Positions 49,258 through 55,200 of a DNA stretch of 64,000 bases are shown piece after piece (position 1 is the first letter of the stretch; every line of letters begins with the position of its first letter). The notes beneath the pieces are model-generated. The model saw only the letters and a program-made list of their open reading frames with translations, had not been told where the DNA came from and ran no database searches. The DNA is taken from NCBI GenBank assembly GCA_964019415.1, contig OZ025887.1, positions 5,701,450-5,765,449 of the forward strand. The letters are read 5' to 3'. The position numbers and the translations under genes were made by a program. This DNA is from Ianthella basta. Taxonomy: Eukaryota > Porifera > Demospongiae > Verongiida > Ianthellidae.

Positions 49258-52200
49258 ATGAGCAGTTCTGATTCGACCGACTCGGAGGAGGTGCTCCAAT
49301 TCTCCGATCAAGAGCTTGGAGAGGACAATGGACAGCTAGCTGAAGAGGTAATACTGCATGGCAACCTCTTGCAGCTTTTCTACACATGTAAGCATACCTT
49401 AATACGTTATGTTGGTAGGGTGTTTCATCGTCATCATCATCACCATCATCATCATCATCATCATCATCATTATCATCATCATCATCATCATCACCATCAT
49501 CGCCATCTTATCACTTAACTGAGGCATCTGCATGTGGATATTATTGTGAATTGGGAGTCTTATTTAATGTGTGGATGCCTTTAGCCGTACACCTACTCCT
49601 CCAGACACACACAATGCAGTTACAAACAGTTACAAATGACATTCAGCACAGCAGTTTGTTATCTGTTACGTGGAGCAATGCTTGCTGGCAGGGGATTGCT
49701 GTTAAGGAACATTAGCTGCCATGGCCCGGTTTTGAGGTCCAGACATTCTGCACTGCACCGAGAATGCTTTGTATCGATGTCTTGCTGGAATGCAGACAAG
49801 AATGTTTCTTTGAACTTCCTTTGAATGATCTTTTCTCTGAATAGGAAGCAGCAGAGGATGTTAGTAATGAGTTAGATAGTGTATTCTGACTATGAAATAT
49901 TCTTCAGCTGCAGAGATTACCCCACGTAGCAATGTACTTCTAGGATAGATGATGGCTTTCTGCTACCAATGCACTGAATGGTTAACTGTTAATAATGTCG
50001 TATTGCGGCTGTTCACTGACTGCCACCTACAGGTGAAGGATTACTTGGAGTCAATCGGCCTGTCTTCCCCAGTGATGTAAGTTCACAAATGTGCATGACT
50101 GTTCTGTTCGGTGAGTTGGAGCAACTAGACTAGTGCAAGTCTCCTTCCTCATATGTCTGCCTTGCAGGAAAGGCACTGGAGACAGGATTATGGAGAGGGA
50201 GAATAACAGTGAGGCCACGGGAATGCAGAGGAAGGGAAGAGTCAATAAGGCAGGACAGGCGAAGAGCATGGATGGTAATCAAACTCGGAAGACTGAGGCT
50301 ACGGATGCAGTGGCTAAGGGTGTCGTTGCTACCTCTGGTAGAGGAAAGAAGAGGGTAGCTAAGATGCCACAAAGACAATCTATTGCCAAGGAACATGATG
50401 ACATCGTGCCAAGCCTTCTGAGATACCAGTCATTCCAGCAGAAACGAATGTTGTTCAACTATGAAACAGCTGGACCGTGGTTTGAAGAAGTAAGGCTGAG
50501 AATGTGTCCACACTACACTGTCATGTACATGCCCCATGAACCCACTGTTGGCACACCAGGCAGTACCAGGGTGTGTCTGTGTGTGTGCGTGTGTGCGTGC
50601 ATTGCAATTGATGCTACATGCACATATCCCAGTGTGTTTGGAGCCCTGCTGGGTCTCTATGAACAGCTGTGTAAGGCTTGTATGGCTTCATTGTGTTGGG
50701 GTCAATGTATAATGCATATGGGTGTATGTCATCATGAGTCTGTGGTCCATTGTTGGCAACAATTGGCCTGTTGTGTGTGTGTATACATGTGTTCAGAGGC
50801 CTGAATGAGCATGCGTTATGTGTGGCCCTTGACTGAAGAGGTTGGTGTCCACCATTAACTGTGATAACCTTTCATGTGTACCTACTGTAGGTAGGTGGAG
50901 AGGTTGCCACGGTAACTGCATCCCTTCCCAGTGATGTCATCGACCACCTCACAAAGGCTGCTGAAATCCTACTTTCCAATGATGTGCAGATGTACGAAAA
51001 AGGTACTTACTTGTGCAAAATAGCACATGTACTTGCTAGGATACCAAGTGTTTGAACATGAAAGCTGATAGTCTAATGGAGCTGATACCTGTGGCTTCAT
51101 TAGACAGAGACACTGAAAACTGATACATGTCTGCATGTGTGCTGTGTCGCTTGTGGTTTCTTGTAGCTAAAGAGCAGAAGAAGCGCTCTGATGTTGAGTG
51201 GCTTAAGACTGTCATGACTTCAGGAACTCTGGCCGACAAGATGGCCGCTCGGGCACTTTTGATACAAGTAAGCCAAGGCAGGAGATGTGGTTACGATTGC
51301 ATGTAGCTGGGCAGCCTCCAGGAGTGATGGGAGATAATCTGTGTCATCCCACAAAAGAGGAGAAGGAGTATTAAGTATAGGAGAGTCCTCTACCGCAAAT
51401 TTCCATTGTTGAACATTTCTTTATTCTCCCCCCTTCCCCTTCTCCCATTGTTGTGTTGGTGCATTCTCCTAGGAGTCTCCTGTCCACAACCTTGCGTCCC
51501 TGGACATGCTTCTCTCCATGAGCATCAAGAAGGGTAAGAGAGAGAGCCTACAGGCCATTGATGTCCTGAAGGACCTCTGGCTCAGCACCATGCTCCCGCG
51601 GGATCGGAAGTTGAGGGCGTTTGCGTCCAGGCCCTTCCACCAGCTAGTTGGTGCATCGTCCTCCCAGCTGAAGAAGGACAGACGGCTACTGCTGTGGCTT
51701 GTGGAAGACCAAGTCAAGTCGTGTTACCAAAGCTACCTGTCCACACTGCAGTCACTGCTGCGAGACCCTGTTGTAGACGTGAGGAGCAAGTTATTGGGTG
51801 CGTCTGTGGGAAAGGGTGATGGGTCATCTGCTGTTATGTACTGTATCTGTATGTGGCCTTGCTGTTGTATAGCACAAGTTGCTTTTTCACGTTGGCACTC
51901 CTTCATCTTCCTCCCTTCTTCCTCCTTGCTGTGATTCTCCCGTTGTCCATCTTTATCTGTAACTTTCCTCCCCCTCCCCTCCCCTCCCCTCCCCTCTCCT
52001 CCCCTCCCCTCCCCTCCCCTCTCCCCATGTCCCTTGCTCCAGGGCATGTGTTCGACCTCCTTACACAGTGCCCTGAGCAGGAGCAGTCTCTCCTGTCCAT
52101 GCTGGTCAACAAGCTTGGTGACCCCAATGGGAAGGTTGCCTCTCGCGCATCACTCTTCCTCCTGAAGTTAGGTATGATGGGTAGTGTGTGTGTGTGTGTG

Positions 52201-55200
52201 TGTGTGTGTGTGTGTGTGTGTGTGTGTGTGTGTGTGTGTGTGTGTGTGTGTGTGCGTGTGTGTTCGTGTGTGTGCGTGTGTGTGTGTGTGTGTGTGTGTG
52301 TGTGTGTGTGTGTGTGTGTGCGTGTGTGTTCGTGTGTGTGTGCGTGTGTGTGTGTGTGTGTGTGTGTGTGTGTGTGTGTGTGTGTGTGTGTGTGAGTGTG
52401 TAGTGTGTAGTGTGTACGTATGTATAGTATGCATGTTTATTCATGTATTAGTGTAGTCAGTTGCAGTTCCACTGTACCCTAACACACTGAGTGTGTCAAA
52501 TGACCCTTGCACATCCTGCCCTCACCCCTCCCCTCACCCCTCCCCTCACCCCTCCCCTCTCCAGTTACCCAGCACCCAAACATGAGTCGTGTGGTGGTTC
52601 GAGAGGTGGAGAGACTTCTCTACCGACCCAACATCTCTGACAGAGCACAGTGAGTTGTTGGTGTACTGCAGTTTGATATCTGCAACAGTAACAGACAATA
52701 TTCCACACACTGAGCAAGTACATGTATGTAATACACACTACACAAAACAGTGGGCATGATACCTGTATAAAAGAAGCACTCACAGTAAGAGAGGTCAAAG
52801 GTCTTTGATGACTGAGCTGACCACAGCCTCATGGTGTTGACATTGTCACAACCGTAGCCAGGAATAGCCACCAAATCTAGTAAGTCATGTGTTTGCTAGT
52901 TTGCACAAGTAAGTACCTTTTTCGTACATCTGCACATCATTGGAGAGTAGGATTTCGGCAGCCTTTGTGAGGTGGGTCAATGACATCACTGGGAAGGGAT
53001 GCAGTTACCGTGGCAACCTCTCCACCTACCTACAGTAGGTACACATGAAAGGTTGTCACAGTTAATGGTGGACACCAACCTCTTCAGTCAAGGGCCACAC
53101 ATAACGCATGCTCATTCAGGCCTCTGAACACATGTATACGCACACACAACAGGCCAATTGTTGCCAACAATGGACCATCTTCGCCCTGAAGAAGACCAGA
53201 GCATCTGGTCAAAACGTCGGCAAGGTTTTCAACCCTGTTGTGAAGCTGGTATTAGAGAACCAACCCTTTCTGATGTGTTTTATGTAAAAGAGGTTAACTC
53301 CTGTGTGTGTGTGTGGTGTGTGTGTGTGTGTGTGTGTGTGTGTGTGTGTGTGCGTGCATGCGTGCGTGTGTGCGTGTGTGAGTGTGTGTGTGTGTGTGTG
53401 TGCGTGCATGTGCTGTATGCCAGACAATATTCCACATATGAATACACACTGAGCACACACTCACGAACACACCTACACACACACTCATGAACACACCTAC
53501 ACACACACTCGTGAACGCTCCTACACACACACTCATGAACACACCTACACACACACTCGTGAACGCTCCTACACACACACTCATGAACACACCTACACAC
53601 ACACTCGTGAACACTCCTACACACACACTCGTGAACACACCTACACACACACTCATGAACACTCCTACACACACACTCGTGAACACTCCTACACACACAC
53701 TCGTGACACACCTACACATTGTACCATATGCTCTATACTGAATGACATTTGTACGTGTGTGTGGCCGTTTAGTGAACCACGTCTCCATGTACTTTGTCTT
53801 AGGTACTACGCCATCTGCTTCCTGAACCAGCTGCCCTTGAAGAAGACTGCTGATGATCTTGCTGGGCATTTGGTTGGACTGTACTTTGTCTTCTTCAAAG
53901 TATGTCAGTGTGTAGTGCAATACGTAGGTGTGGGTGTGTCTGAGTGGGCGTGTCGGCAGTATATGCCCCTTGATGGGTGTGTCCTTGATGGGTGTGTCCA
54001 TGATGGGTGTGTCTTTGATTGGTATGTCCTTGATGGGTGTGTTCTTGATGGGTGTGTTCTTGGTGGGTGTGTCCTTGGTGGGTGTGTCCTTGATGGGCGT
54101 GTCCCCTCACTTCACCCTGTGCTGTCCTGTAGACACTGGTCCAGAATGATCAGCTGAACACCAAGATGCTGAGTGCTGTTCTGACTGGAGTGAACAGAGC
54201 CTTTCCCTTTGCAAGAGGTACGTACCAGTTATGCTGTGTTCACTCTGTATGTATACAGCAAAGGGGTGTGTTTGGAGTGTGTGTGTGTTTGTGGTGTGTG
54301 TGGGGGGGTGGAGTGGGTGGGGTGGGTGGGGTAATTTTGTTTGTTGTCATGAACATGTGTGTACCAGAACTATAGTGTTCATTTTCTGTATTATAGTGTA
54401 CTTCGTATTGTTTGTCACTTCTGTTTCCTCTTGTGTCCATATTCCCATTCCTGTTGTGTCAATGTTTCCATTCCTGTTGTGTCAATGTTCCCATTCCTGT
54501 TGTGTCCATAGTCCCATTCCTGTTGTGGCAATGTTCCCATTTTTTATGTAGGTGAAGTCGAATCCTTTGAAAACCACATGGACACTTTGTTCAAAGTGGT
54601 ACATGTAGGCCCTGTTGCTACGGGGATACAGGTGGGCGGAGCTTGTGGGTGAAGCTTTAAGACATATCTTGTGGTCCTCTCACTCGCTTTAAAGGTACCG
54701 TCTCTTGCCTCCTCCTCCTCCTCCTCCTCCTCTCTCTGTGTGTGTGCAGGCACTGATGTTACTGTATCAAGTTATGGAGTCAAGGTGTGAGGGGGAGAGA
54801 GGGGGGAGGGAGGACTGTGAAGGTGTGTGAGTGGGAGGGAGGAGTGTGAGGGTGTGTGAGGGGAGGGGAGTGTGAGGGTGTGTGACGGAGAGGGAGGAGT
54901 GTGAAAGTGTGTGAGGGGGAGGGAAGAGTGTGAGGGTGTGTGAGGGGAGGGAGGAGTGTGAGGGTGTGTGAGGGGGAGGAGGGAGAGTGAGTATGAGACA
55001 TGCATAGATGTGGGTGAAAGGTGATGTATATCAGAGAGGTGTGATGGACTTTGAAATGAGCTGATTTTGCAAGCAATAAATTGAACTGGTTTGTCTTTCT
55101 ATCCCTCGCCTGCAGGCAGTCTGTGTCTGACCGCTACTATCGTGCCCTTTACAGCAAGCTGCTTGACCCCCAGCTCTGTTCTACTTCAAAGCTGGCCATC

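What the first reader, a model, noticed from the sequence alone, without database searches (positions are those of the whole stretch)
50743..53177. CEBPZ intron 9 carries a 283-bp antisense copy of CEBPZ exon 5
52895-53177 is the reverse complement of 50743-51024 (about 97% identity, all of exon 5 plus both splice sites). Within one pre-mRNA the two would pair into a hairpin of about 280 bp that buries exon 5 and its splice sites. Possible outcomes are exon 5 skipping, back-splicing of exons 5-9, A-to-I editing, or endogenous siRNA. Skipping exon 5 (112 nt) would shift the frame, so this could act as a self-limiting switch for a ribosome-assembly factor.
Basis: partly seen in the sequence, partly recalled or inferred. 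Interest (0 to 1): 0.85.

Follow-up and report, generated by a model that had tools for sequence, protein, structure and literature searches.

The report
Jumping-gene scar copying CEBPZ exon 5
The backwards copy of a CEBPZ exon in a later intron is real, but it is most likely scrap DNA copied from nearby when a Penelope-like jumping gene inserted there, not a designed splicing switch; whether it disturbs the gene is untested.

Summary
52895-53177 is an inverted copy of 50743-51024 (97.5%), spanning the 112-nt CEBPZ exon 5 and both splice sites; a whole-genome search reports only these two places. The switch interpretation has no support here. The copy ends where a 98-nt Penelope-like element (PLE) tail begins (53178). 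Copy plus tail lie between short target-site duplications, and a related sequence at 60.3 kb shows the site without them. The flanking intron DNA is an older patchwork of neighbouring pieces: antisense glycogen-phosphorylase exon/intron from 32.3 kb and a stretch like 60.3 kb.

Of 69 other PLE loci sampled, 55 (51 separate events) are head-to-head foldbacks; 49 of 51 carry the ~30-nt tail extension on one side only. All three with host-derived fillers of 40 nt or more (L009, L046, L079) copied sequence within about 0.6 kb. One filler seems to include the fresh PLE-target junction, which points to a DNA template.

Best explanation: two-sided PLE integration in which the left end folded back on a 15-column inverted homology, copied 283 nt of CEBPZ, and was joined to the PLE arm. 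Copying of nascent pre-mRNA remains possible. The predicted duplex is very strong, but no RNA data were available.

The parts
50743..51024 (+). source stretch: end of intron 4, CEBPZ exon 5, start of intron 5
50891..51002 (+). CEBPZ exon 5, 112 nt, AG/GT borders
53178..53275 (+). 98-nt tail of a Penelope-like element, without the ~30-nt extension; 98 of 98 nt identical to L008, L009 and L010
52887..52894 (.). left target-site duplication ATGTGTTT (directly adjoining the CEBPZ copy)
   Evidence: coordinates counted from the letters printed
53273..53280 (.). right target-site duplication ATGTGTTT (its ATG is shared with the PLE end, so 5-8 nt)
   Evidence: coordinates counted from the letters printed
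52877..52890 (+). left-flank sequence with imperfect inverted homology (13 of 15 columns) to CEBPZ intron 5 at 51025-51039, just beyond the copied stretch: likely annealing site
   Evidence: 80 of 20,000 random 45-nt window pieces score as high
52715..52865 (-). older local patch: antisense copy of glycogen phosphorylase exon/intron 32259-32409, 98.7%
32259..32409 (+). source of that patch: 3' part of a glycogen phosphorylase exon (ends about 32340, by eye) plus intron
60326..60476 (+). sequence homologous to 52870-52894 joined to 53276-~53424 without the CEBPZ/PLE insert (empty-site comparison; it reads ATGCGTTT at the duplicated site); probable source of the second older patch
52692..52716 (.). 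left copy of CAGACAATATTCCACA...CACTGAGCA, flanking the older patchwork
53421..53460 (.). right copy of CAGACAATATTCCACA(TATGAATACA)CACTGAGCA (end approximate)

Best explanation
The antisense exon is locally copied filler DNA inside a Penelope-like element insertion. Shown: copy and PLE tail form one unit between short target-site duplications; in the sample the PLE family mostly sits as two head-to-head arms that start at two sites about 30 nt apart; three sampled insertions carry fillers copied from a few hundred bases away. Inferred: the PLE enzyme cut both strands of the intron. The right end was extended on PLE RNA, giving the 98-nt arm without extension. The left end, which would normally have copied the extended PLE tail, instead annealed through its CTAGTAAGTCATGTG end to the complementary site at 51025-51039 of its own strand and copied 283 nt of intron 5, exon 5 and intron 4. 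It was then released and joined to the PLE arm with at most 1 nt of microhomology. It has no designed function; any hairpin in the pre-mRNA is a side effect.
For: The copy ends exactly at the start of a repeat whose 21-mer has 953 exact matches in the genome, none for the reversed control. RT domain in L031 and GIY-YIG domain in L017, both upstream of the same tail. Copy and tail lie between ATGTGTTT duplications, and 60.3 kb shows the uninterrupted sequence. Of 69 sampled loci, 55 are two-armed, 51 separate events after removing four repeats; 40 of 51 have an adjacent duplication of 8-15 nt (flanks shuffled among loci: mean 0.9, at most 4), and 49 of 51 carry the extension on one side only. 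Arm outer ends cluster at tail positions 91-99 (40 of 51) and 124-127 (49 of 51; 127 is the end of the probe). The three host fillers of at least 40 nt are all local: L009 62 nt at 100% and L046 59 nt at 95%, L079 97 nt at 100% plus 54 nt at 98%. Background for such local second copies is 34 of 659 random 60-nt pieces. L046's filler includes the last 6-8 nt of the PLE tail joined to target DNA. Inverted homology at the left junction. A purified PLE cleaves and extends both strands and starts at two sites that bound the 'tail' (PMC11167929). Foldback on 10-bp imperfect inverted microhomology gives inverted insertions in yeast (PMC11724301).
Against: The three other long fillers copy in direct, not inverted, orientation and from under 0.6 kb; the CEBPZ copy is longer (283 nt) and 1.9 kb away, so it is the only long inverted one seen. 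The yeast foldbacks are mostly under 14 bp and at most about 150 bp. The left primer end has three T's that do not match the template. The junction homology was noticed before it was tested. The target-site duplication (8 nt, of which 5 are unambiguous) is at or below the short end of the family's 8-15 nt, and 11 of 51 sampled foldbacks show none. In the empty-site sequence the duplicated stretch differs by one base. L041, which looked like a second case, was a repeat-family match. The asymmetry of the arms could be inherited by copying of ready-made foldbacks.
Confidence: 0.66

Rival explanations
1. Same insertion, but the template was RNA: the PLE reverse transcriptase extended the left end on CEBPZ's own nascent, unspliced pre-mRNA, and this antisense cDNA was joined to PLE cDNA.
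For: The copied strand equals cDNA of CEBPZ pre-mRNA. The older patch is likewise antisense to glycogen phosphorylase, and the 60.3-kb piece is antisense to an apparent minus-strand gene whose last reading frame ends at 60480 (by eye; four minus-strand frames there gave no Pfam match). Human templated insertions and L1 chimeras can be RNA-derived (PMC5110952; PMC13174262).
Against: The pieces that cross exon borders are unspliced, and all are local. Either orientation can be explained by priming from either end, so strand is no test. L046 seems to have copied a PLE-target junction, which favours DNA.
Confidence: 0.2
2. Two unrelated events: an ordinary local inverted duplication, with the PLE tail arriving separately beside it.
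For: The intron already holds other local patches in which no PLE was seen, so local copying happens here anyway.
Against: The copy ends at the base where PLE arms often join (position 1 is an inner end in the three commonest joints, 28 of 51 events), and both parts lie inside one pair of target-site duplications.
Confidence: 0.08
3. The hairpin is a selected regulatory switch of CEBPZ (exon skipping, editing, siRNA).
For: Very strong predicted pairing that covers both splice sites; skipping would shift the frame.
Against: Origin as part of a mobile-element insertion; no sign of selection for pairing (4 wobbles and 2 mismatches of 6 substitutions); no RNA data; exon 5 could be spliced before the second arm, about 1.9 kb downstream, is transcribed (inference).
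Confidence: 0.04
4. Assembly artefact.
For: Inverted chimeric reads exist (general knowledge).
Against: Six substitutions and an indel between arms, a PLE arm and target-site duplications at the junctions, and a comparable empty site.
Confidence: 0.02

Closest known systems
Poseidon/Penelope PLE integration (PAc of Anolis, PMC11167929; abstract, passages and the main-text section read)
   Same: RT and GIY-YIG domains; both target strands cut and extended; two RT start sites separated by an optional 30-40 nt tail
   Different: Here most sampled genomic copies are foldbacks, 49 of 51 with exactly one extended arm, and this one carries host-exon filler; the section read mentions no host filler
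Foldback and templated insertions at double-strand breaks (PMC11724301; start of abstract and passages read)
   Same: Imperfect inverted microhomology near the break primes an inverted copy, which is then joined to the other end
   Different: Here 283 nt from 1.9 kb away, at a retroelement insertion; in yeast mostly under 14 bp, at most about 150 bp
Templated sequence insertion polymorphisms, classes 1 and 2 (PMC5110952; passages read)
   Same: Target-site duplication with copied host sequence
   Different: Source is local, there is no poly(A), and a PLE rather than LINE-1 is attached
[quoted passage not shown] abstract and passages read)
   Same: Host gene piece antisense beside a truncated retroelement inside target-site duplications
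   Different: Here the piece is unspliced and from the same gene as the target
T-DNA filler DNA in plants (PMC8395108; search listing only)
   Same: Filler DNA and microhomology at junctions of an insertion
   Different: Different insertion machinery; comparison otherwise recalled

Membership tests
Penelope-like element | reverse transcriptase domain upstream of the tail | tested here: met
   L031 ORF 2-1255: RVT_1, E 6.8e-07, 29.6 bits = cutoff. The window copy itself is only the 98-nt tail and is assigned by identity
Penelope-like element | GIY-YIG endonuclease domain | tested here: met
   L017 ORF 689-1456: GIY-YIG, E 4.8e-05, 24.0 bits, cutoff 22.6; Pfam did not report it in L031 even at E up to 10, where it is seen only by eye
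Penelope-like element | two arm/start sites about 30-40 nt apart (optional tail) | tested here: met
   outer ends at 91-99 in 40 of 51 and 124-127 in 49 of 51
Penelope-like element | hammerhead ribozyme | tested here: inconclusive
   no Rfam hammerhead at E up to 5 in L031, L021, L079, none in the window at gathering score; a CTGAAGA...GAAAC core is seen by eye in other copies, and a reduced hammerhead is described in PMC11167929
Penelope-like element | tandem copies with pseudo-LTRs | not tested
   loci of about 3 kb are too short
Foldback templated insertion | inverted microhomology next to the break at the copy's start | tested here: met
   13 of 15 columns; 80 of 20,000 random pieces and 38 of 5,000 shuffles score as high; tested after it was noticed, and three primer-end T's do not match
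Foldback templated insertion | other end joined with little or no homology | tested here: met
   at most 1 nt shared at 53177/53178 (by eye)
Foldback templated insertion | DNA polymerase and end-joining dependence | not testable with these tools
   needs mutants
Class 1 templated sequence insertion | target-site duplication of at least 5 bp | tested here: met
   5-8 nt
Class 1 templated sequence insertion | poly(A) and distant source | tested here: not met
   no poly(A); source 1.9 kb away
Selected intronic hairpin | conservation of pairing across individuals or relatives | not testable with these tools
   no relatives of this genome are held

The most novel reading that the evidence does not exclude
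In this animal, PLE integration is a two-sided foldback reaction whose free end sometimes copies the target gene itself, from nascent pre-mRNA or from its displaced sense strand. It would thereby keep writing antisense copies of host exons into introns of the same gene: a standing generator of long intronic hairpins in which some new dsRNA-dependent regulation could start.
Probability: 0.22. Interest if true: 0.72.

Novelty: new variant of a known kind. Interest (0 to 1): 0.48.

Why it matters
How PLEs integrate is poorly known. A genome with 953 exact copies of a tail 21-mer, where 55 of 69 sampled loci are foldbacks and 49 of 51 separate foldback events have one extended and one unextended arm, is a readable record that fits two-sided priming from two start sites, reported in vitro for a lizard element. 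The fillers show what the ends may do before they are joined, and how a whole exon with splice sites can land antisense in its own gene. Gene finders and RNA-seq pipelines might misread such copies.

Tried and rejected
L041 looked like a second case (about 110 nt beside a PLE with an inverted copy 2.1 kb away). It belongs to a repeat family (7 places, itself included), and the match runs past the supposed duplication; rejected.

Single-armed or TSD-less loci, 200 nt next to the PLE searched in the whole genome: L029's belongs to a large repeat family (380 candidates, 40 scored). L012's is a repeat (61 candidates, 40 scored, itself included) whose matches begin at query positions 1-5, that is at the PLE border. 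L037's is unique. L062's has 8 further copies. None gave a clear capture; the other single-armed loci were not searched. The ten spacers of 8-39 nt were compared only with their own locus and the PLE and gave no convincing source outside the PLE.

A strand-based test of RNA versus DNA templates was dropped because either end can prime. A hammerhead was not found by Rfam. Rfam miRNA matches in L021 are below gathering score and lie in the middle of a palindromic PLE pair. Editing: none of the six substitutions is A-to-G in the sense direction.

The three exon substitutions (50941, 50962, 50974) fall at synonymous third positions when read by eye against the frame, so some differences may be exon-side or allelic; too few to date the event.

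Correction made on recount: one search counted L021 and L022 apart, but they are the same pair of ends; one search gives 51 events, not 52. It also scores L013 as lacking the extension because the nearest arm piece is short; one search shows an arm reaching 127 there.

Literature: searches listed no paper that, by title and start of abstract, deals with PLE insertions carrying host filler or with this exon; some searches listed only part of their hits (15 of 20, 20 of 22, 15 of 337, 8 of 10).
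Full report
Check of the observation. The inverted copy is present at the stated coordinates: 52894-53177 against 51025-50743, 97.5% over 284 columns, E 2.65e-138, and a search of the whole genome (209 Mb, 96 contigs) reports only these two places. Exon 5 is 50891-51002, 112 nt. The gene is CEBPZ/Mak21. The spliced frame of exons 4-8 is open; my borders of exons 4, 7, 8 and 9 in that script were off by 1-3 bases, so I claim no frame beyond exon 8.

What it is part of. The base after the copy, 53178, is the first base of a 98-nt repeat: 62 matches were listed, 40 of 963 candidates being scored, and an exact 21-mer from it occurs 488 + 465 times, against none for the reversed control. 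Longer members carry a reverse transcriptase domain (L031) and a GIY-YIG domain (L017), so the family is Penelope-like. In many members the 98 nt are followed by about 30 nt more (CCTGAGCC...CACTTCA); in ours they are not.

One insertion. ATGTGTTT stands directly left of the CEBPZ copy (52887-52894) and again at the right end of the PLE tail (53273-53280; its ATG is shared with the PLE end). A sequence at 60326-60476 matches the left and right flanks without the insert, reading ATGCGTTT at the duplicated site; a search with 60310-60372 returned only that place. So the CEBPZ copy and the PLE tail most likely arrived together in DNA that already existed.

Older patchwork. That existing DNA is itself assembled from neighbours. 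52715-52865 is an antisense copy (98.7%) of 32259-32409, the end of a glycogen phosphorylase exon plus its intron. It is followed by the 60.3-kb-like stretch. The pair is flanked by CAGACAATATTCCACA...CACTGAGCA on both sides, with a 10-nt difference. No PLE tail other than 53178-53275 matches in this intron. The intron has thus received three local pieces in at least two steps.

How the PLE family inserts. I sampled 69 loci: L006-L034 (29 of the best matches), L036-L055 and L060-L079 (40 taken in order along contig C1 from the first 100 places). Of 69, 55 have two head-to-head arms (arm pieces of at least 19 nt, starts facing, less than 1.5 kb apart) and 14 one. Removing L066, L067, L068 (same events as L055, L060, L055) and L022 (same pair as L021) leaves 51: 40 have an adjacent duplication of 8-15 nt, 11 none; with flanks shuffled among loci the mean is 0.9 and the maximum 4. 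The extension is on one side only in 49, on both in 1 (L021), and scored absent in 1 (L013, where one search does show it). Outer ends fall at 91-99 (40 of 51 shorter-tailed arms) and 124-127 (49 of 51 longer-tailed arms; the probe ends at 127); inner-end pairs take 25 forms, the commonest 15 times. A purified PLE was reported to cut and extend both strands and to start at two sites bounding the optional tail, without a difference between the strands (PMC11167929, main text read). The genome pattern fits this, with the addition that the two sites are used once each. It could also in part be inherited by copying of ready-made foldbacks, which the recurrent junction hints at; I could not separate the two.

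Fillers. Of 51, 26 arm pairs meet with no gap, 7 with 1-7 nt, 10 with 8-39 nt, 8 with 40 nt or more. Of the eight, four are longer PLE copies (L021, L025, L026, L030), one is PLE sequence again (L032), and three are host sequence. L009: 62 nt, 100%, source about 0.24 kb away. L046: 59 nt at 95%, from the right-hand border. L079: 97 nt at 100% plus 54 nt at 98% in one patchwork, crossing an apparent intron-exon border unspliced. Random 60-nt pieces of the same loci have such a second copy in 34 of 659 cases, in 12 loci. L046's filler shares TCACTTCA, the last eight bases of the PLE tail (two of which also fit the duplication), and runs on into target DNA, as if copied from the just-made right-hand junction, hence from DNA; eight bases are few, and the filler differs from the flank at three places.

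The CEBPZ copy in this light. It takes the place of the extended left arm. The left flank has 13 of 15 columns of inverted homology with intron 5 just beyond the copied part; 80 of 20,000 random window pieces score as high. This is the geometry of foldback insertions described at yeast breaks (PMC11724301, passages), though longer. Which polymerase copied, and from DNA or pre-mRNA, is inference. Against my reading: the three other long fillers are in direct orientation and closer.

Consequences for the gene. Arms would pair at -566.6 kcal/mol (37 controls: mean -120.6, best -143.8), and the predicted fold of 50450-53350 pairs 280 of 282 arm bases. Whether this happens in cells is unknown: the arms are 1.9 kb apart and splicing of exon 5 may come first. 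The six substitutions leave four G-U wobbles and two mismatches, so I see no selection for the hairpin.

Limits. No relatives, RNA or reads of this animal are held; that it is an animal is inferred from its genes, and the species was not identified. Pattern searches for more fillers did not complete.

Noticed in passing
window 41483-41640 and 43025-43056: Another PLE foldback in the window; its left-flank 32 nt have an inverted copy 1.5 kb away (97%), and about 12 nt of the left flank reappear inverted right after the PLE arm (the 12 nt by eye).
   Followed up: partly
window 40643-40757: A third PLE insertion: one inverted arm joined to the last bases of the extension, with an ATTATTG(T/C)ATG duplication around it (by eye).
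   Followed up: partly
window 18355-20846 and 21109-24252: Direct tandem duplication in four blocks, 82-95% identical.
   Followed up: no
window 24723-25773 and 28402-29461: Inverted pair of about 1.05 kb, 72% identical.
   Followed up: no
L021/L022 (contig C2, about 8305.6-8307.2 kb): Two PLE ends with extensions on both outer sides, about 1.36 kb apart, with a palindromic centre that scores sub-threshold as miRNA hairpins in Rfam.
   Followed up: no
L012 1608-1807: Another repeat (61 candidates, 40 scored, 94-98% apart from itself) begins at the PLE border, query positions 1-5: possible junction of two mobile elements.
   Followed up: partly
PLE arms in 15 of 51 foldback events: The same inner junction (positions 1 and 11, sharing TCTTC) recurs, either a joining hot spot or a foldback lineage that copies itself.
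   Followed up: no
window 50780-51020 / 52899-53140: Four of the six substitutions between the arms are A-to-G when read on the strand of the copy.
   Followed up: no
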